Assembly (NCBI GenBank): GCA_017694495.1
Contig: JADIMU010000018.1
Location: forward strand, 1 to 32,504
Origin: Candidatus Aphodenecus pullistercoris
GTDB lineage: Bacteria; Spirochaetota; Spirochaetia; Sphaerochaetales; Sphaerochaetaceae
DNA length: 32,504 bases
Reading direction: 5' to 3'
The notes beneath the pieces were generated by a model. It was not told the DNA's origin. It saw nothing but the letters and a program-made list of their open reading frames with translations, and did no database searches. Positions 13,792 to 25,001 of the stretch are shown in pieces; positions within the stretch are counted from its first letter, which is position 1, and every line of letters starts with the position of its first letter. The position numbers and the translations under genes were made by a program.

Positions 13792-13801
13792 GAGGTGCAA
13801 G

Positions 13802-13814
13802 AAAATTCAATTTT
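13802..13814. promoter_or_regulatory. Palindrome upstream of the ilv promoter, possible operator
   Basis: AAAATTCAATTTT is a perfect 13-base palindrome centred on 13808. It is flanked by TGCA on both sides at slightly unequal distance (13796-13799 and 13816-13819). It ends 13 bases before the -35 box of the branched-chain amino acid operon. The A/T content is unlike the surroundings. It could bind a regulator or be part of a weak terminator. Confidence 0.3.
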
Positions 13815-13827
13815 GTGCATATCTTGA

Positions 13828-13857
13828 TTGACACGCTCAGGGAAAAAGAAGTAAGAA
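13828..13857 (+). promoter_or_regulatory. Promoter of the ilv-leu operon
   Basis: A perfect -35 box TTGACA (13828-13833) is followed after 18 bases by TAAGAA (13852-13857), a weak -10. Transcription would start near 13864, giving a leader of about 190 bases before ilvN that contains the leader peptide and attenuator. Confidence 0.5.
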
Positions 13858-13895
13858 GACGGCATCAAGGAAGAAAAAGGGAGGTTTTGCCGAAG

Positions 13896-13979
13896 ATGTC
13901 AGCTCCATTCGTACCGTATGCGTCCGGTCCCTCCCTTTCAGCAGCAAGCATCCTTATCGTCCTACTCATTAGAGGCTAG
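13896..13979 (+). CDS. ilv leader peptide (attenuation), 27 residues
   Basis: This is a short frame from ATG 13896 to TAG 13977-13979, preceded by GGGAGG (13879-13884, 11 bases away). Codons 19-25 (13950-13970) read Ile-Leu-Ile-Val-Leu-Leu-Ile, seven branched-chain codons in a row. They include CTT, CTA and ATT, which the neighbouring genes seldom use. Two codons and the stop follow, and then the hairpins at 13979-14041. Ribosome stalling at these codons when charged Ile, Leu or Val tRNA is scarce would favour the antiterminator. The peptide itself probably has no other function. The arrangement is that of known ilv leader peptides, placed directly before an ilv operon. Confidence 0.88.
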   Translation: MSAPFVPYASGPSLSAASILIVLLIRG

Positions 13980-14015
13980 ACCACGGTTTAGTTCGCTTCT
14001 GTGTAGCCCGTGGTC
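13979..14015 (+). promoter_or_regulatory. Antiterminator hairpin of the ilv attenuator
   Basis: GACCACGG (13979-13986) pairs perfectly with CCGTGGTC (14008-14015). The second arm overlaps the 5' arm of the terminator (14006-14014), so the two structures exclude each other. The first arm starts at the last base of the leader peptide stop codon, the right place to be affected by a terminating or stalled ribosome. Confidence 0.75.
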
Positions 14016-14041
14016 AAGTTGGAACCGCGGGCAGATTTTTT
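14006..14041 (+). terminator. Intrinsic terminator of the ilv attenuator
   Basis: GCCCGTGGT (14006-14014) pairs with ACCGCGGGC (14024-14032), nine pairs with one U-G, around a nine-base loop. AGA and six T residues follow (14036-14041). It lies just before the ilvN ribosome site (GGGAGG, 14045-14050), so it would control the whole nine-gene operon. Confidence 0.88.
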
Positions 14042-14057
14042 ATAGGGAGGTTGAAAG

Positions 14058-15597
<1,540 letters not shown>

Positions 15598-15623
15598 GGC
15601 CATAGCCGGGAAAAGGAGGAGAT

Positions 15624-17219
15624 ATGGCAGAAAGAGTCTATGTGTTCGACACGACGCTGAGGGATGGTGAGCAGGCCCCTGGCTATTCCATGAATCTGGA
15701 TGAGAAGATCAAGATGGCCAAGGCGCTCGAAGCCCTGGGCGTCGACATCATCGAGGCGGGCTTCGCCATCTCCTCCCCAGGGGATTTCGAGTCCGTCAAG
15801 GCCATCGCCGAGAGCGTCGAGAACGTCGTCGTCGCCTCTCTGGCGAGGGCCCTGAAGAAGGACATCGACGCCGCCTGGAATGCGGTCAAGGGGGCGCGCC
15901 GCCCCCGCATCCACCTCTTCCTCGCCACGAGCGACCTCCATCTGGAGTACAAGCTCAAGATGACGAGGGCGGAGGCGCTGGAACGCATCCGCGAGAACGT
16001 CACCTATGCGCGCAGCCTATGCGACGACATCGAGTTCAGCCTCGAGGACGCCTCGCGTACCGACCTGGACTACATGTGCCGCGTCGTCGAGACGGCCATC
16101 GAGTGCGGGGCGACGACTGTCAACCTGCCCGACACGGTCGGCTACGCGACCCCTGACGAGATCAGCCGCATGGTCCACTACGTGCGTGACCACGTGCCCA
16201 ACATCGACAAGGCCATCATAAGCATGCACAACCATGACGACCTGGGTCTGGCCGTGGCAAACACGATCAGCGGCATCGAGGCCGGAGCCCGCCAGGTCGA
16301 GTGCACCCTGTGCGGCATCGGAGAGAGGGCGGGCAACGCCGCCCTCGAGGAGATCGCGATGATCCTCAAGACCCGTCAGGACCACCTGCCGTACGAGACG
16401 GGCATTGTGACGACTGAGATCACCCGCGCCTCACGCCTGCTGGCGACCACGACAGGCATCAAGCCCTATCCGAGCAAGGCCATCGTCGGCGCCAACGCCT
16501 TCGCCCACGAGTCCGGCATCCATCAGCATGGCATGATGGCCAACAGCCAGACCTACGAGATCATGACGCCAGAGAGCGTCGGCGTGAGCCAGACGAGCCT
16601 CGTGCTTGGCAAGCACTCCGGCCAGCACGCCTTCTCAAAGAAGCTCGTCGAGCTGGGCTACAGCGTGGGCAAGGAGGACGAGGACAGGCTCTTTGCCGAG
16701 TTCAAGCGGACCTGCGACCGCAAGAAGACGATCACGGACCGCGACATCATCGCCCTGGTCGAGAGCACGGAGGAGAAGGAGTCCCAGATCTGGACCCTCG
16801 AGTCCTTCGTCGTCAACAGCGGCAACCATATGGACTCCACTGCGTGCATCAGCCTGAAGAAGGACGGCAAGGTCTACAAGGATGTCGCCATCGGCACCGG
16901 ACCGGTCTACGCCTCCCTCAGGGCCGTCGAGAAGATCATCCGCCATCCCTTCAGCCTGGACGACTACCAGCTGTCCGCCGTCACGGAGCACCGCGACGCC
17001 CTCGGAGAGGTCCTGGTCAAGGTCTCCGACGCCAGCGGCACCTACCGTGGACGCGGCGTGAGCACCGATGTCATCGAGGCGAGCATCCTCTCGACGCTGG
17101 CGGCGGTCAACCGCATGCTCTCCGGCGCAAAGGGGACGATGGGGCAGGGCCAGAGCGCCAGCGCGATGAGCTTCGAGAACGACATGCTCACCGGCCACAC
17201 GGACAAGTCGGAGGCCTGA
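15624..17219 (+). CDS. leuA: 2-isopropylmalate synthase
   Basis: This 531-residue enzyme condenses acetyl-CoA with 2-oxoisovalerate, the first step of leucine synthesis. The catalytic TIM barrel starts with DTTLRDGEQAPGYSM (R13, D14) and has the metal ligands H202 and H204 in SMHNHDDLGL and N238 in GERAGNAALEE. The second signature region is HESGIHQHGMM. The C-terminal part from about residue 385 is the LeuA regulatory domain (DASGTYRGRGVSTDVIEASI-type strands), which normally binds leucine for feedback inhibition. The length fits the long bacterial form. AAAAGGAGG lies just before the ATG. The stop overlaps the next start by one base (TGATG). Confidence 0.96.
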   Translation: MAERVYVFDTTLRDGEQAPGYSMNLDEKIKMAKALEALGVDIIEAGFAISSPGDFESVKAIAESVENVVVASLARALKKDIDAAWNAVKGARRPRIHLFLATSDLHLEYKLKMTRAEALERIRENVTYARSLCDDIEFSLEDASRTDLDYMCRVVETAIECGATTVNLPDTVGYATPDEISRMVHYVRDHVPNIDKAIISMHNHDDLGLAVANTISGIEAGARQVECTLCGIGERAGNAALEEIAMILKTRQDHLPYETGIVTTEITRASRLLATTTGIKPYPSKAIVGANAFAHESGIHQHGMMANSQTYEIMTPESVGVSQTSLVLGKHSGQHAFSKKLVELGYSVGKEDEDRLFAEFKRTCDRKKTITDRDIIALVESTEEKESQIWTLESFVVNSGNHMDSTACISLKKDGKVYKDVAIGTGPVYASLRAVEKIIRHPFSLDDYQLSAVTEHRDALGEVLVKVSDASGTYRGRGVSTDVIEASILSTLAAVNRMLSGAKGTMGQGQSASAMSFENDMLTGHTDKSEA

Positions 17220-18805
17220 TGGAAAGGCGTGTCGCGATCTTCGACTCGACCTTGCGCGACGGCAGCCAGGGCGAGGGGCTGAGCTTCTCCGTCGACGACA
17301 AGCTGCGCATCGTCCAGCTGCTGGACGAGCTGGGCGTCGCCTACATCGAGGCGGGCAATCCTGCAAGCAATGTGAAGGATTTGTCCTTCTTCCAGCGCCT
17401 GGGCTCGCTGAGCCTGCGCACTTCCCAGGTCGTCGCCTTCGGCTCGACCCGCCGGGCGGGAATCAGCTGCGACGAGGACAGGAACCTCCAGTCCCTGGCC
17501 TCCTGTCCCGTGGATGTCGTCGCCATCTTCGGCAAGTGCTGGACCTTCCAGGTCACGGACATCCTGCGCATCAGCCTGGAGGAGAACCTCGAGCTGATCC
17601 GCTCCTCCGTCGCCTGGCTCGTAGGCAAGGGCAAGAGGGTCTTCTTCGACGCCGAGCATTTCTTCGACGGCTGGAAGGAGGACAGGGACTATGCCATGCG
17701 CTGCCTGGAGGCGGCGAAAGAGGCGGGAGCCGAGGTCCTCGTGCTGTGCGAGACGAGGGGAGGACGCCTTCCCGACGAGGTCGAGGAGGCTGTGCGCGAC
17801 GTCGTCGCCACCTTCCCTGAAGACGGCATCGCCATCCACGCCCACAACGACTCGGGCTGTGCCGTCGCCAGCTCCCTTGCGGCCGTGAAGGCTGGGGCCA
17901 GCCAGGTCCAGGGGACGCTGCTTGGCATCGGGGAGCGCTGCGGCAACGCCGCCCTGAGCACCCTGATCGCCGACCTGGAGCTGAAGATGGGCATCAGGTG
18001 CATCTCCGGCCGGCTGGAGCAGCTGGGGGGAATATGCAAGGCTGTGGCCGCGCTGTGCAACATCAACATCGCGCCGCGCAGTCCCTACATAGGAGCTTCC
18101 GCCTTCGCCCACAAGGGAGGGATGCACATCGACGGTGTCCTCAAGGACCCGAAGAGCTTCGAGCATGTGAGGCCCGAGCTCGTCGGCTCGAGCCGCCGCC
18201 TCCTGATGAGCGAGGTCGCAGGACGGGCCCTCCTGATGCGCCGCATCGAGGCGGTCATGCCAGGTCTGGGCAAGGACAGCGAGCCTGTGGTCGCGCTCAC
18301 CGAGCTGTTGAAGGCGAAGGAGGCGGAGGGCTACCAGTACGAGGGCGCCGAGAACAGCTTCGACGTCCTGATCTACAAGGAGCTCTTCCACAGCGAGCCC
18401 TTCTTCACCTTGATCCACTACCAGACGATAGGCTCGCTTCCCTACGCCGATCCCGGCAGCGGAGCCAGCCATACGGCCCTGGTCAAGGCGAGCGTCAGGG
18501 GCGAGAGCGCCATCGCCGCCGCCGAGGGCAGGGGACCTGTGAACGCCCTGGACAAGGCCCTTCGCGGCGTCCTGGAGCAGTTCTACCCCTCGCTCAGGAC
18601 GGTCCACCTCGTCGACTACAAGGTCCGCGTCCTGGATGGGGCCGACGCTACGGCCAGCCGTGTGCGCGTCCTGATCGACTCCTCGGACGGCCAGGACTCC
18701 TGGTCGACGATAGGCGTCAGCAGCGACATCATCAAGGCCAGCTTCCTGGCCTTGTCGGACAGTATGGAGTACAAACTCTTCAAAGATAGGAACAGAAGGA
18801 GATGA
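17219..18805 (+). CDS. cimA: (R)-citramalate synthase
   Basis: This is a 528-residue relative of LeuA, in the group that condenses pyruvate with acetyl-CoA to citramalate, the threonine-independent entry to isoleucine. The CimA-type start is [17 protein letters not shown] (R13, D14). Metal ligands H207 and H209 lie in [14 protein letters not shown], followed by [11 protein letters not shown] and the [12 protein letters not shown] signature. A C-terminal regulatory domain follows ([14 protein letters not shown], then [14 protein letters not shown]). One oddity is that the barrel motif usually read as CDTNGG is CETRGG (177-182) here. Downstream citramalate is processed by LeuCD and LeuB, encoded next to it. 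No threonine deaminase gene is in the window, consistent with this route. The ATG overlaps the leuA stop by one base. Confidence 0.92.
18796..18801 (+). promoter_or_regulatory. Shine-Dalgarno site deciding the leuC start
   Basis: AAGGAG ends directly before ATG 18802 (no spacer) but six bases before the in-frame ATG 18808, so 18808 is the better start. A third ATG at 18817 has GGGAGG only one base away. Confidence 0.6.
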
Positions 18806-18807
18806 GA

Positions 18808-20088
18808 ATGGGAGGAATGACATCCACCGAGAAGATTCTGGCCCGCGCCGCCGGCCTTGAGGCCGTCCATGCGGGACAGCTCATAATGGCGGACCTGGAC
18901 CTCGTGCTTGGCAACGACATCACAAGTCCGGTCGCGATCGCCGAGTTCGAGAAGTTCGGCCTGGACCATGTCTTCGACAAGGACCGCGTGGCCCTCGTGC
19001 CGGACCACTTCGCGCCGAACAAGGACATCAAGGCTGCGACGCAGTGCAAGTGCGTGCGCACCTTCGCCCGCAGGATGGACATCACGAACTACTTCGAGGT
19101 GGGCCAGATGGGCGTCGAGCACGCCCTGCTGCCGGAGAAGGGCCTGGTGAGCGCCGGGGACGTCGTCATCGGAGCCGACAGCCACACGTGCACCTACGGA
19201 GCCCTCGGCGCCTTCTCGACCGGCGTCGGCTCGACCGACATGGCCGCCGGAATGGCGACGGGCAAGGCCTGGTTCAAGGTGCCCTCGGCGATCAGGTTCA
19301 ACCTCACCGGCTCCCTGAGGCCCTACGTCTCGGGCAAGGACCTCATCCTCCACATCATAGGCATGATCGGCGTCGACGGCGCCCTCTACAGAACGATGGA
19401 GTTCTCTGGTCCCGGCGTCGCCTCCCTCTCGATGGACGACCGCTTCACCATATGCAACATGGCCATCGAGGCCGGTGGCAAGAACGGCATCTTCCCCGTC
19501 GATGAGCAGACGCTGGCCTACCTGAAAGCCAGCGGCGCGAAGGAGCCGAGGATCTACGAGAGCGATCCGGACGCCAGCTATGAGCGCGTCATCGACATCG
19601 ACCTGTCGACGATAGAGAGCACTGTCGCCTTCCCCCATCTGCCTTCGAACACAAGGACGATAGGCGAGTGCGGCCACGTCGAGATCGACCAGGTCGTCAT
19701 CGGCAGCTGCACGAACGGCCGCATCAGCGACCTGCGCCAGGCGGCTGACATCCTCCGTGGCCGCCATGTCGCCGAAGGCCTGAGGTGCCTCATCATACCG
19801 GCGACGCAGAAGATCTGGCGCCAGGCGATGGACGAGGGCCTCTTCGACATCTTCATGGATGCCGGCTGCGTCATAAGCACGCCGACATGCGGACCTTGTC
19901 TTGGCGGCTACATGGGCATCCTGGCCGAGGGTGAGCGCTGCGTGTCGACGACGAACCGCAACTTCGTCGGCCGCATGGGCCATGTGGGCAGCGAGGTCTA
20001 TCTTGCCAGCCCGGCGGTCGCCGCGGCTTCTGCCGTGGCCGGATGCATCGCCGACCCGGCGGCTCTGGAGAAAGGAGGAGAGAGATGA
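18808..20088 (+). CDS. leuC: 3-isopropylmalate dehydratase large subunit
   Basis: This is the 426-residue aconitase-family subunit holding the [4Fe-4S] cluster. Ligands are C301 ([12 protein letters not shown]), C361 and C364 ([10 protein letters not shown]). Other signatures are [20 protein letters not shown] (124-143) and the N-terminal [13 protein letters not shown]. With LeuD it isomerises 2-isopropylmalate to 3-isopropylmalate. In this operon it must also isomerise citramalate through citraconate to methylmalate. The form is the short type found in archaea and many anaerobes, with LeuCD separate. The start is chosen by the ribosome site. ATG 18802, overlapping the cimA stop, would add two residues. 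The stop overlaps the leuD start by four bases. Confidence 0.95.
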
Positions 20089-20579
20089 AAGCACACGGAA
20101 GCGTCTTCAGGTACTACGACAACGTCGACACTGACGTCATCATCCCGGCCCGCTATCTGAACACCTCGAGCGCCGCCGAGCTTGCCTCCCATTGCATGGA
20201 GGACATCGACAAGGACTTCGTCAAGAAGGTCCGTAAGGGCGACATCATCGTGGCGGGGGCCAACTTCGGCTGCGGCTCGAGCCGCGAGCACGCACCTCTG
20301 GCCATCCGCGAGAGCGGGGTCGGCTGCGTCATCGCATCGAGCTTTGCGCGCATCTTCTACCGCAACTCGATCAACATCGGCCTGCCCATCCTCGAGTGTC
20401 CTGAGGCCAGCCGCCGCATCAAGGCCGGCGACGAGGTGGAGGTCGACTTCGACAGCGGCCTGATCCACGACCTCACAAGTGGTGAGAGCTTCAAGGCAGA
20501 ACCCTTCCCGCCCTTCATGCAGGAGATCATCAAGGCGGGCGGTCTGGTCGAATACCTCAAGAAGGAGGAGGGAAGATGA
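20085..20579 (+). CDS. leuD: 3-isopropylmalate dehydratase small subunit
   Basis: This 164-residue swivel-domain subunit completes the LeuCD isomerase. The N-terminus reads [17 protein letters not shown] and the substrate loop [14 protein letters not shown] (61-74) carries the conserved [27 protein letters not shown] follows, as in all LeuD and aconitase swivel domains. The start is ATG 20085, overlapping the leuC stop (ATGA) with AAAGGAGG upstream. The upstream in-frame ATG at 20043 lies inside leuC and is not needed. The stop overlaps leuB by four bases. Confidence 0.96.
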
Positions 20580-21643
20580 AACTCGAGATCGCATTGATTC
20601 CCGGCGACGGCATCGGACCCGACATCGTCCGCGAGGCCGTCAAGGTGCTCCAGACCGTCTGCGACAAGGCTGGGCACAGTCTGAAGACGAAGAGCCTGCT
20701 TGCCGGTGGCGCCGCCATCGACGCGACAGGAAAGCCGCTGCCTGAGGAGACCCTTGAGGAGGCCAAGGCCTCCCAGAGCGTCCTCCTGGGCGCAGTCGGT
20801 GGCCCGAAATGGGATGCCGTGCCCGGCGAGCTCAGGCCGGAGAAGGCCCTCCTGGGACTGCGTGGGGGCCTGGGCCTCTTCTGCAACCTCCGCCCGGCGC
20901 TGCTCTACAGCCAGCTCGCCGACGCCTGCCCGCTGAGGCGGGAGAGCGTCGAGGGCGGTCTGGACATCATGGTCGTGCGCGAGCTCACCGGAGGCATCTA
21001 CTTCGGCGAGCGTGGACGCACTGCAGATGGCGCCTACGACACGATGAGCTACACTAAGGGCGAGGTCGAGCGCATCGCACGCAAGGCCTTCGAGATTGCG
21101 ATGAAGCGTTCGAAGAGGCTGACGAGCGTCGACAAGGCCAACATCCTCGAGACGAGCCGCCTGTGGAGGGCGACGGTGGACGAGGTCGCGCGCGACTATC
21201 CCGAGGTGGCCGTCAACCACCTCTACGTCGACAACGCCGCCATGCAGCTCGTGCGCAATCCCCGCCAGTTCGACGTCATCCTCACCGAGAACATGTTCGG
21301 CGACATCCTCTCCGACGAGGCGAGCATGGTCACAGGTTCGATCGGCATGCTTCCCTCGGCCTCGCTGAGGGCTGACTCCTTCGGCATGTACGAGCCCATC
21401 CACGGCTCGGCTCCCGACATCGCGGGACAGGACAAGGCCAACCCTCTGGCGACCGTCCTCTCCGTGGCCATGATGCTGCGCTACAGCCTGGGCATGGGCG
21501 AGGAGGCCAGCCTTGTGGAGAAGGCTGTCGACAAGGTCCTCGACGAGGGTCTGAGGACGGCCGACATCTACACTGAAGGCACGAAGCTGTGTGGAACCAG
21601 GGCCATGGGGGACGCTCTCGTCCAGGCCGTCAAGGAGGCCTGA
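20576..21643 (+). CDS. leuB: 3-isopropylmalate dehydrogenase
   Basis: This 355-residue enzyme oxidises and decarboxylates 3-isopropylmalate to 2-oxoisocaproate with NAD+. It can also serve methylmalate in the citramalate route. Signatures are [14 protein letters not shown] at the start, [34 protein letters not shown] with the substrate arginine, and [14 protein letters not shown]. The metal-binding [19 protein letters not shown] and the NAD-binding [20 protein letters not shown] follow. All are typical of LeuB rather than isocitrate dehydrogenase. The ATG overlaps the leuD stop (ATGA) and has GGAGGAGGGA upstream. Confidence 0.97.
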
Positions 21644-21644
21644 G

Positions 21645-23315
21645 ATGAGGAGCGATGTGATGATGAGGGGCGTCGAGAGGGCGCCCAACCGCTCCCTGAT
21701 GAAGGCCCTCGGCTGGAGTGAGAGGGAGATGGACATGCCAGTGATAGGCATCGTCAGCGGCCAGAACGAGATCATCCCGGGCCACGTCCAGATCCAGCGG
21801 ATCGTCGACGCCGTAAAGGCGGGCGTGAGGGAGGCGGGTGGAAATCCCGTCACCTTCCCCGTGATCGGAGTGTGTGACGGAATCGCCATGGGCCACCAGG
21901 GCATGAAGTACTCCCTGTGCTCCAGGGAGCTGATCGCAGACAGCATCGAGGTCATGGCCCAGGCCCATCCCTTCGACGCCCTCGTCATGGTCCCCAACTG
22001 CGACAAGATCGTGCCTGGCATGCTCATGGCGGCATGCCGGCTCAACCTGCCCACCGTCTTCATCTCCGGCGGCCCCATGCTCTCGGGCCACATCAAGGGG
22101 GTGAAGGACCGCAGCTTCTCACTATCCTCGATGTTCGAGGCCGTGGGCCGCTACAAGGCCGGCACGATGGACGAGGCCGAGCTCAAGGTCTGGGAGGACA
22201 GCGTCTGTCCGACATGCGGCTCATGCTCCGGCATGTATACGGCCAACAGCATGAACTGCCTTTGCGAGGCGATCGGAATCGCCTTGCCCGGCAACGGGAC
22301 GGTGCCCGCCGTCTACGCCGAGCGCGAGAGGCTGGCCAAGGAGGCAGGCTACGCCATCATGGACATGCTCAGGAATGGAGTGAGGGCCCGCGACATACTG
22401 ACGAAGGACGCCTTCTGGAATGCGCTGACCGTCGACATGGCCCTCGGCTGCTCGACGAACACGATGCTCCATCTGCCGGCCATCGCCCACAGCGCTGGAG
22501 TCGAGCTGGACATCTGGGACGCCAACGAGCTCAGCTCGAGGACGCCCAACCTCTGCCACCTGGCTCCGGCGGGACCGGCCCACATCGAGGACCTCTACCA
22601 GGCGGGCGGCATCATGGCCGTGATGAAGGAGCTTGACAAGAAGGGCCTTCTGAAGCGTGACCTCATGACGGTGACGGGGCACAGCATAGGCGAGAACTAC
22701 GCCGATGCGACCAACTGGAACGAGGAGGTCATAAGGCCGGTCGACAGGCCCTACGACCAGACGGGCGGCATCGCAGTCCTGAAGGGCAACCTCGCTCCCG
22801 AGGGCGCCGTCGTCAAGCGTTCCGCCGTCGCGCCCGAGATGCTGGTCCACCGTGGTCCTGCCCGCGTCTTCGACAGCGAGGAGGAGGCCATAGCGGCCAT
22901 CTACGAGCGGCGCATCGTCAAGGGCGACGTCGTCGTCATCCGCTACGAGGGACCCAAGGGCGGGCCCGGCATGAGGGAGATGCTCAACCCGACCTCCGCC
23001 ATAGCCGGAATGGGACTGGACAAGGATGTGGCATTGATCACGGACGGACGCTTCTCCGGAGCGACCCGTGGCGCCTCGATCGGCCATGTATGTCCGGAGG
23101 CCGCCGCCGGTGGCCTGATCGCTCTGGTCGAGGATGGCGACATCATAGAGATAGACATCCCCGCATGCCGCCTCAGCCTGTGCGTCGACGAGAAGACGCT
23201 GGCTGACAGGAAGGCCAATTTCAAGGCGAGGGTGAACGAGTGTACCGGCTACCTGAAGCGCTACCGCGACAACGTCACGAGCGCGAGCAGGGGAGCCGTC
23301 TTCAAGGAGGATTGA
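21645..23315 (+). CDS. ilvD: Dihydroxy-acid dehydratase
   Basis: This 556-residue iron-sulfur enzyme makes 2-oxoisovalerate and 2-oxo-3-methylvalerate from the IlvC products. The cluster and metal residues are visible: C77-D78 ([16 protein letters not shown]), C119 with D120-K121 ([12 protein letters not shown]), and C191 and C194 ([17 protein letters not shown]). The C-terminal half has the [12 protein letters not shown] and [16 protein letters not shown] signatures. The start is ATG 21645, two bases after the leuB stop. AAGGAGG lies six bases upstream, which outweighs an in-frame ATG at 21591 inside leuB. The stop is directly followed by the TTG start of ilvB. Confidence 0.97.
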
Positions 23316-25001
23316 TTGACTCTCACAGGTGCTCATGCAATCATGGAAGTGCTCAAGGAGCAGGGCGTCGACCTGGTCTTCGGCTACCCCGGTGGACAGG
23401 TAATACCATTGTATGACGCCCTCTATGAGCAGAAGGGCAGGATCAGACACATCCCGACGGCGCACGAGCAGGGCGCGAGCCACGCCGCCGACGGCTATGC
23501 CCGCTCGACGGGCAAGGTCGGCGTGTGCATCGCGACCTCCGGTCCCGGTGCGACGAACCTGGTGACGGGACTCGCCACAGCCTACATGGACTCGTCTCCC
23601 GTCGTCGCGATCACGGGCAACGTCCCGATCAGCCTCCTGGGCAAGGACAGCTTCCAGGAGGTCGACATCACGGGCGTCACCATGCCTGTGACGAAGCACA
23701 ACTACATCGTCAAGCGCAGCGAGGATCTCGTCGACACCTTGCGCGAGGCCTTCCACATCGCACGCTCCGGCCGCCCCGGCCCCGTCCTCGTCGATGTTCC
23801 CAAGAACGTCCAGACGGAGATGGTCGAGTATGAGTACAGGGAGCCGCAGCCAGTATTGCGCGACACGAGCCGGCTGCGCCAGGAGGATCTGGAGAAGGCT
23901 GTGGAGATGCTCTCACAGTCCAGACGCCCGATGTGCTACATCGGAGGCGGAGTCGTCCGCTCAGATGCCAGTGGTGAGCTCATGACCTTCCTCGAGAAGA
24001 CGGACAGCGCAGTGTGCTCCTCCCTGATGGGTCTTGGTGCCGTCAGGGCCGACAGTCCACGTTTCACCGGCCTGGTCGGCATGCATGGCACGAAGCTGTC
24101 CAACATGGCGGTAAACGAATGCGACCTGCTCGTCGTCATCGGAGCCCGCTTCTCCGACAGGGTCATCAGCAAGGGCTCGACCTTCGCCCGCCAGGCGAGG
24201 ATACTCCAGCTCGACATCGATCCGGCCGAGTTCGACAAGAACGTCATAAGCAACCTCCATGTCGTCGGTGACGTCAGGGAGATCCTCAGCCGGCTGAACG
24301 CCATGCTCCCCGACGGTGCGGACCACAACGAGTGGCTCGAATGGGTCGCCGTCAACCGCCGCCGCTATCCGGTGAAGGTCACAAGCGAGTCGAGGAGGGC
24401 ACGCGAGATCATCCGCGCCCTGGACAAGGAGCTTGCCAGGATCGGGGACGCCTATGTGACGACCGAGGTCGGTCAGCACCAGATGTGGGCCGCCCAGTTC
24501 CTGAAGCACAGCCAGCCGAGGCACTTCATAACCTCCGGTGGTCTGGGCACGATGGGCTTCGGCACCGGAGCCTCGATCGGCACCCAGCTGGCCCATCCCG
24601 ACAGGAGGGTGTGCAACATCGCAGGTGACGGTTCCTTCCGCATGAACTGCAACGAGCTGGCGACGATAGCGCGCTACCGCCTGCCCATCGTCATCCTGGT
24701 CTTCAACAACCACTGTCTGGGCATGGTCCGCCAGTGGCAGACCCTCTTCTACGAGGGACACTACAGCGAGACCACGCTTGACACGCCCCTGGACTGGGTG
24801 ATGCTGGCGAACGCCTACGGAGTGGAAGGCATGAGGATGGGAAGGGACGACGACCCGGCCGCCGTCATCCATGAAGCCTTCAGCCGCAACCGTCCCGTAG
24901 TCGTCGACTGCGAGATTCCGATCGACGACAAGGTCCTGCCCATGGTCGCTCCCGGAGCCTCCATCGACGACATGATGGGCTTCGTCGAGGAGCCGATGTG
25001 A
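23316..25001 (+). CDS. ilvB: Acetolactate synthase large (catalytic) subunit
   Basis: This 561-residue thiamine-diphosphate and FAD enzyme joins two pyruvates, or pyruvate and 2-oxobutyrate. Visible are FGYPGGQVIPLYDAL at the start, catalytic E51 in AHEQGASHAADGYAR, and TSGPGATNLVTG. The C-terminal TPP motif runs from GDGSFRMN (437-444) to FNN (463-465), followed by MVRQWQTLFY. The start is TTG 23316, immediately after the ilvD stop, with AAGGAGG five bases upstream, and gives the usual N-terminus. It is the last gene of the operon, about 9 kb from its regulatory subunit ilvN, which is the first. Hairpins follow at 25010 and 25069. Confidence 0.97.
   Translation: MTLTGAHAIMEVLKEQGVDLVFGYPGGQVIPLYDALYEQKGRIRHIPTAHEQGASHAADGYARSTGKVGVCIATSGPGATNLVTGLATAYMDSSPVVAITGNVPISLLGKDSFQEVDITGVTMPVTKHNYIVKRSEDLVDTLREAFHIARSGRPGPVLVDVPKNVQTEMVEYEYREPQPVLRDTSRLRQEDLEKAVEMLSQSRRPMCYIGGGVVRSDASGELMTFLEKTDSAVCSSLMGLGAVRADSPRFTGLVGMHGTKLSNMAVNECDLLVVIGARFSDRVISKGSTFARQARILQLDIDPAEFDKNVISNLHVVGDVREILSRLNAMLPDGADHNEWLEWVAVNRRRYPVKVTSESRRAREIIRALDKELARIGDAYVTTEVGQHQMWAAQFLKHSQPRHFITSGGLGTMGFGTGASIGTQLAHPDRRVCNIAGDGSFRMNCNELATIARYRLPIVILVFNNHCLGMVRQWQTLFYEGHYSETTLDTPLDWVMLANAYGVEGMRMGRDDDPAAVIHEAFSRNRPVVVDCEIPIDDKVLPMVAPGASIDDMMGFVEEPM

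What the first reader, a model, noticed from the sequence alone, without database searches (positions are those of the whole stretch)
13864..14041. Complete ribosome-mediated attenuator with an unannotated leader peptide before the ilv-leu operon
A 27-residue leader frame (13896-13979) has seven consecutive Ile/Leu/Val codons (13950-13970). It ends at the first arm of an eight-pair antiterminator (13979-13986 with 14008-14015). That hairpin's second arm overlaps the 5' arm of a nine-pair terminator followed by six T residues (14006-14041). The ilvN ribosome site follows at once. This design is well known in Proteobacteria and Actinobacteria. For a spirochaete-like organism it would be a noteworthy case. 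One leader appears to sense all three branched-chain amino acids.
Basis: partly seen in the sequence, partly recalled or inferred. Interest (0 to 1): 0.75.

Follow-up and report, generated by a model that had tools for sequence, protein, structure and literature searches.

The report
Ribosome-sensing attenuator before ilv-leu operon
Ahead of a spirochaete's genes for making isoleucine, leucine and valine lies a conserved RNA switch that almost certainly uses a ribosome's progress through a tiny Ile/Leu/Val-rich peptide to decide whether those genes are transcribed; the design is classic, and what is new is finding it conserved through this bacterial group.

Summary
The window has a 27-codon leader frame (13896-13979) with seven consecutive Ile/Leu/Val codons (13950-13970), an antiterminator, an overlapping terminator with six U, and then ilvN of a nine-gene ilvN-ilvC-leuA-cimA-leuCDB-ilvD-ilvB operon. 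Thirty-six related spirochaete loci carry the same leader before ilvN, with an ATG, the Ile/Leu/Val run, near-invariant antiterminator arms and a terminator. A model of it hits all 20 sampled genomes of two genera that have a detectable ilvN. I add three parts: a conserved stop-codon hairpin (13974-13993) that competes with the antiterminator, a conserved promoter (TTGACA at 13828), and a fixed rare Leu codon, CTA. Other spirochaete families have independent-looking versions before ilvD-ilvB. A Leptospira ilvB leader was already proposed as a branched-chain attenuator (PMC10272879), so this is a new member of a known kind. No expression data were available, and equilibrium folding alone does not favour antitermination.

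The parts
13828..13856 (+). Likely promoter: TTGACA (13828-13833), 17-nt spacer, GTAAGA (13851-13856); transcript predicted to start near 13863
   Evidence: TTGACA found upstream of the leader in all 35 loci examined, with a conserved GTAAGA/GTATAA-type second hexamer 17 nt on. The consensus scan did not score it because the second hexamer is weak. Start site inferred.
13879..13884 (+). Ribosome-binding site of the leader peptide (GGGAGG, 11 nt before ATG)
   Evidence: Sequence. A purine-rich site precedes the leader ATG in the relatives.
13896..13979 (+). Leader peptide frame, 27 codons and TAG stop
   Evidence: The frame and C-terminal run are conserved in 36 relatives. The N-terminal half is free to vary.
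13950..13970 (+). Control codons Ile-Leu-Ile-Val-Leu-Leu-Ile, including the conserved rare Leu codon CTA at 13962-13964
   Evidence: CTA at this position in the window and all nine closest relatives (10 of 10), against 2 of 257 Leu codons in the operon.
13974..13993 (+). Stop-codon hairpin (13974-13981 with 13986-13993, loop CACG): anti-antiterminator
   Evidence: Folds in 36 of 37 leaders by per-sequence folding. Own partners beat swapped partners in 1999 of 2000 permutations.
13979..14015 (+). Antiterminator hairpin (13979-13986 with 14008-14015)
   Evidence: Core arms nearly invariant in 37 sequences.
14006..14041 (+). Intrinsic terminator (14006-14014 with 14024-14032, U tract 14036-14041), overlapping the antiterminator's 3' arm
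   Evidence: No permutation of 2000 reached native stability.
14045..14588 (+). ilvN ribosome site (14045-14050) and gene (GTG 14058 to 14588), first gene of the operon
   Evidence: Acetolactate synthase small subunit, NCBIfam above cut-off.
14605..25001 (+). Rest of the controlled operon: ilvC, leuA, cimA, leuC, leuD, leuB, ilvD, ilvB
   Evidence: Each best matched by the named NCBIfam family above cut-off. Same strand with short or overlapping junctions.

Best explanation
This is a ribosome-mediated transcription attenuator for the whole branched-chain amino acid operon. RNA polymerase starts near 13863 and a ribosome begins the 27-codon peptide. If charged Ile-, Leu- or Val-tRNA is short, the ribosome stalls in 13950-13970. 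Its front edge then lies at or before about 13980, so CCACGG (13981-13986) is free and pairs with CCGTGG (14008-14013) as soon as that emerges. This uses up the 5' arm of the terminator, and transcription goes on into ilvN. If all three are plentiful, the ribosome reaches the TAG at 13977, covers to about 13989 and blocks CCACGG. The terminator then forms and transcription ends near 14041. After release, the stop-codon hairpin helps to keep CCACGG occupied. Shown here: the anatomy, its conservation, the fit between arms, the association with the operon. Inferred: the start site, the ribosome footprint, stalling, termination and read-through.
For: All parts are present in the right order and overlap. 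The leader is conserved in 36 relatives, always before ilvN. The frame keeps Ile/Leu/Val while third codon positions change most in the closest group (0.42 against 0.22 and 0.16 per codon comparison). CTA makes up 48 of 149 Leu codons in the leader ends, against 4 of 638 in the relatives' ilvN, which matches the CUA preference predicted and tested for the enteric leu attenuator (PMC1183508). Arms fit their own partners better than swapped ones. Model hits in 20 of 393 phylum genomes, all in two genera, and the two genomes of those genera without a hit also lack a detectable ilvN. In RNA ending at 14022 the antiterminator forms with probability 0.99-1.0 if CCACGG is free; with the ribosome at the stop codon it cannot form and the terminator follows. 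The operon makes all three sensed amino acids.
Against: No transcript or ribosome data were available. At equilibrium, RNA to 14035 favours the terminator in every state, so the switch must be kinetic. The antiterminator core hardly varies, so it has little compensatory evidence of its own. On the plain alignment the stop hairpin is not above shuffles; its support comes from per-sequence folds and the swap test, and relatedness of the sequences inflates swap tests. The leader's own ribosome site is predicted to be mostly paired, which could lower translation.
Confidence: 0.93

Rival explanations
1. A T-box riboswitch that binds uncharged tRNA directly. The stretch AAGTTGGAACCGCG near 14016-14029 resembles the T-box sequence.
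For: 12 of 14 bases resemble the T-box motif recalled from memory (sequence).
Against: No T-box match even at E 10 with permissive filters. The resembling loop is not conserved in relatives. A conserved peptide frame is not expected in a T-box.
Confidence: 0.01
2. A metabolite- or protein-binding leader (for example a ppGpp-type riboswitch) in which the small frame is incidental.
For: Such elements control ilv genes in some bacteria (PMC10272879, PMC8632094).
Against: No Rfam match. Conserved features are the frame, the Ile/Leu/Val codons and the switch helices; no further conserved aptamer-like domain is evident in the alignment.
Confidence: 0.02
3. A constitutive weak terminator or an RNA stability element without amino acid sensing.
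For: The terminator is stable in every state at equilibrium.
Against: It would not explain the conserved codon run, the enrichment of CTA, or two further conserved hairpins of which one is exclusive with the terminator.
Confidence: 0.03

Closest known systems
ilvBNC attenuator of Corynebacterium glutamicum (three-hairpin model, PMC11857589) and ilvB-II motif (PMC10272879)
   Same: Small frame rich in branched-chain codons before acetolactate synthase genes; terminator, antiterminator and anti-antiterminator hairpins.
   Different: Different phylum and gene order (ilvN first here); [quoted passage not shown] No sequence relation was tested.
Leptospira ilvB motif (WRC-14-1, PMC8632094; reread as an upstream-frame attenuator in PMC10272879)
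   Same: Also a spirochaete; upstream frame rich in branched-chain codons before ilvB; attenuation proposed.
   Different: [quoted passage not shown] The leader here is before ilvN in another spirochaete group, with 37 sequences and a defined switch.
leu and ilv attenuators of enteric bacteria
   Same: Control codons for branched-chain amino acids, use of the rare Leu codon CUA (PMC1183508), competing hairpins.
   Different: The enteric operons are separate (from general knowledge); here one leader precedes all nine genes, citramalate synthase included.

Membership tests
Ribosome-mediated (leader-peptide) transcription attenuator | Short translated frame with codons for the amino acids made by the operon | tested here: met
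   Conserved frame with Ile/Leu/Val run in 37 loci. Translation itself not shown.
Ribosome-mediated (leader-peptide) transcription attenuator | Intrinsic terminator between leader frame and first gene | tested here: met
   Stem plus U tract in all 37 aligned loci; stability beats all 2000 swaps.
Ribosome-mediated (leader-peptide) transcription attenuator | Antiterminator exclusive with the terminator, 5' arm placed so that a ribosome at the stop codon covers it and one at the control codons does not | tested here: met
   Shared bases 14008-14014; geometry and folding with masked ribosome positions. Footprint length assumed.
Ribosome-mediated (leader-peptide) transcription attenuator | Read-through rises when the cognate amino acids are short | not testable with these tools
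   Needs transcript data or reporters.
T-box riboswitch | Match to the T-box covariance model | tested here: not met
   No match at E 10.
Any Rfam leader family | Score above the curated threshold | tested here: not met
   No match in the window.

The most novel reading that the evidence does not exclude
The leader is ancestral to this spirochaete family. In the Sphaerochaeta-like sister genera it has changed its output: the peptide and the CCACGG/CCGTGG hairpin are kept, but most of these leaders replace the intrinsic terminator with a CCCC/GGGG hairpin without a U tract, followed by a conserved TTATACCCA. They would therefore work by another route, such as Rho-dependent termination or control of translation.
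Probability: 0.25. Interest if true: 0.5.

Novelty: new member of a known kind. Interest (0 to 1): 0.36.

Why it matters
It gives a well-defined regulatory RNA, with no Rfam family, to a group of mostly uncultured spirochaetes, and suggests that leader-peptide attenuation of branched-chain synthesis is a common spirochaete strategy rather than a Leptospira oddity. The alignment would serve as a seed for a new RNA family. The differing versions in sister genera offer a natural series for studying how attenuators change their terminators. The fixed CTA codon gives another test of the theory of control-codon choice.

Tried and rejected
T-box: suggested by TTGGAACCGCG near the terminator loop; no model match at E 10 and the loop is not conserved. 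Rfam leaders: none. Consensus promoter/terminator scan: no sites in the region; the terminator lies outside the scan's loop and spacer limits, and the second promoter hexamer is weak. Pair counts on the plain MAFFT alignment: little covariation for the antiterminator because its core is invariant, and the stop hairpin is misaligned by indels, so I used per-sequence folding and arm swaps instead. A second copy of the switch in the genome: one other pattern match (C44:6632) is a near-palindrome and gives no sign of being a leader. A search for older work on Spirochaeta aurantia trpE found nothing in the held library. The broad survey by Lopatovskaya et al. 2010 is cited in held papers but was not read here, so earlier mention of spirochaete cases cannot be excluded.

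Full report
WHAT IS THERE. The window (contig 69 of a 2.07 Mb genome) carries ilvN-ilvC-leuA-cimA-leuC-leuD-leuB-ilvD-ilvB on the plus strand, 14058-25001. Each gene is best matched by the expected NCBIfam family above its cut-off. Between the upstream response-regulator gene (ends 13791) and ilvN lies the leader. All coordinates of the finding check out: frame 13896-13979 (MSAPFVPYASGPSLSAASILIVLLIRG), Ile-Leu-Ile-Val-Leu-Leu-Ile at 13950-13970, antiterminator 13979-13986/14008-14015, terminator 14006-14014/14024-14032, T6 at 14036-14041. Each hairpin folds to -17.9 kcal/mol with no shuffle as stable.

CONSERVATION. A search with IlvN brought 80 loci, about 40 of them from spirochaetes. Thirty-six of these, plus the window, have the same leader directly upstream of ilvN. 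The peptides are mostly 19-30 residues, variable at the N-terminus, and end in runs such as SLIIVLLIRN, ALLLSVLVITC or SLLVLVLLITC. In the alignment (A1, 37 rows) the CCACGG arm, CCCGTGG and several control-codon bases are invariant or nearly so. In the closest ten leaders, changes fall mostly at third codon positions (0.42 per codon comparison, against 0.22 and 0.16 for positions 1 and 2). In the other 26, first positions change as often as third, because Ile, Leu and Val replace each other, and second positions are held (0.36, 0.08, 0.35). A covariance model of A1, run on 393 spirochaete-phylum genomes, hit 20, all in the window's genus (5 of 6) and one sister genus (15 of 16). The two genomes without a hit have no detectable IlvN. 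These 20 overlap with the loci, so they are not independent sequences.

A THIRD HAIRPIN. The stop codon sits in a further hairpin, 13974-13981 with 13986-13993, with CACG in its loop. It shares bases with the antiterminator and cannot coexist with it. Per-sequence folding finds a corresponding hairpin in 36 of 37 leaders although stop codon and spacing differ. Examples are CTAGAC/GTTTAG here, CTAGGC/GCTTGG in L009, ATACTG/CAGTAT in L016 and CTTGAC/GTCGAG in L038. Pairing each 5' arm with 3' arms from other leaders makes it weaker: only 1 of 2000 permutations reached the native mean, and none of 2000 for the terminator. Relatedness of the sequences inflates such tests. On the plain alignment the stop hairpin does not exceed shuffles, because indels put its arms out of register, and the antiterminator core varies too little to covary. 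The design thus has terminator, antiterminator and anti-antiterminator, as proposed from mutational analysis for C. glutamicum ilvBNC (PMC11857589).

CONTROL CODONS. CTA is 2 of 257 Leu codons in this operon and 4 of 638 in the relatives' ilvN, but 48 of 149 in the last 12 codons of the leaders. It is fixed at one position in the closest ten and present in 22 of 26 at another position in the rest. For the enteric leu attenuator CUA was predicted to be the most suitable control codon, and replacing it with CUG lowered sensitivity (PMC1183508).

MECHANISM. With a footprint of about 15 nt ahead of the P site (assumed), a ribosome stalled at the last Ile codon leaves RNA from 13981 on free, and one at the stop codon hides everything to about 13989. 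Folding RNA that ends at 14022, before the terminator's 3' arm, gives the antiterminator with probability 0.99-1.0 in the stalled states, and it cannot form with the ribosome at the stop codon. Folding to 14035 gives the terminator in all states. The switch must therefore be kinetic: an antiterminator formed early has to persist while polymerase passes 14041. With no ribosome at the leader end the antiterminator also wins in RNA to 14022, so basal expression depends on how fast the stop hairpin yields; this was not computed.

WIDER DISTRIBUTION. Their next hairpin, CCCC...GGGG, does not overlap that one, and only a few (L167, L169) have a clear U tract; most have TTATACCCA instead. Two further families (f24, f42) have Ile/Leu/Val frames followed by U runs before what look like ilvD-ilvB (gene identity there inferred from length and position), and one f29 genome has a candidate. 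The Leptospira ilvB motif has been reread as a branched-chain upstream frame with attenuation (PMC10272879). I found no published account of the leader described here in the held library; an unread 2010 survey could contain one.

VERDICT. The finding is confirmed in detail and its interpretation stands. It is a new member, conserved in a spirochaete group, of a long-known class.

Noticed in passing
L104-L107, L163-L181 (upstream of ilvN): Sphaerochaeta-like leaders keep an Ile/Leu/Val peptide and the CCACGG/CCGTGG hairpin, but the following CCCC/GGGG hairpin does not overlap it and usually lacks a U tract; a TTATACCCA element is conserved instead. How a ribosome signal would be passed on is unexplained.
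   Followed up: partly
L143-L146, L162: Other spirochaete families have short Ile/Leu/Val-rich frames with U runs before what look like ilvD-ilvB genes (L143-L146), and a candidate lies before the gene just upstream of ilvN in L162; these look like independent branched-chain attenuators.
   Followed up: partly
window 13876-13884 with 13930-13938: AAAGGGAGG, which holds the leader's ribosome site, is perfectly complementary to CCTCCCTTT inside the leader frame. Across 29 leaders the site is predicted more paired (mean unpaired 0.16) than in synonymous recodings (0.25 and 0.29). This might limit repeat initiation on the leader.
   Followed up: partly
window 13796-13827: Upstream of the -35 hexamer, many relatives share short repeats such as TGCA...ATGCA...TGCAT, possibly an operator for a DNA-binding regulator.
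   Followed up: no
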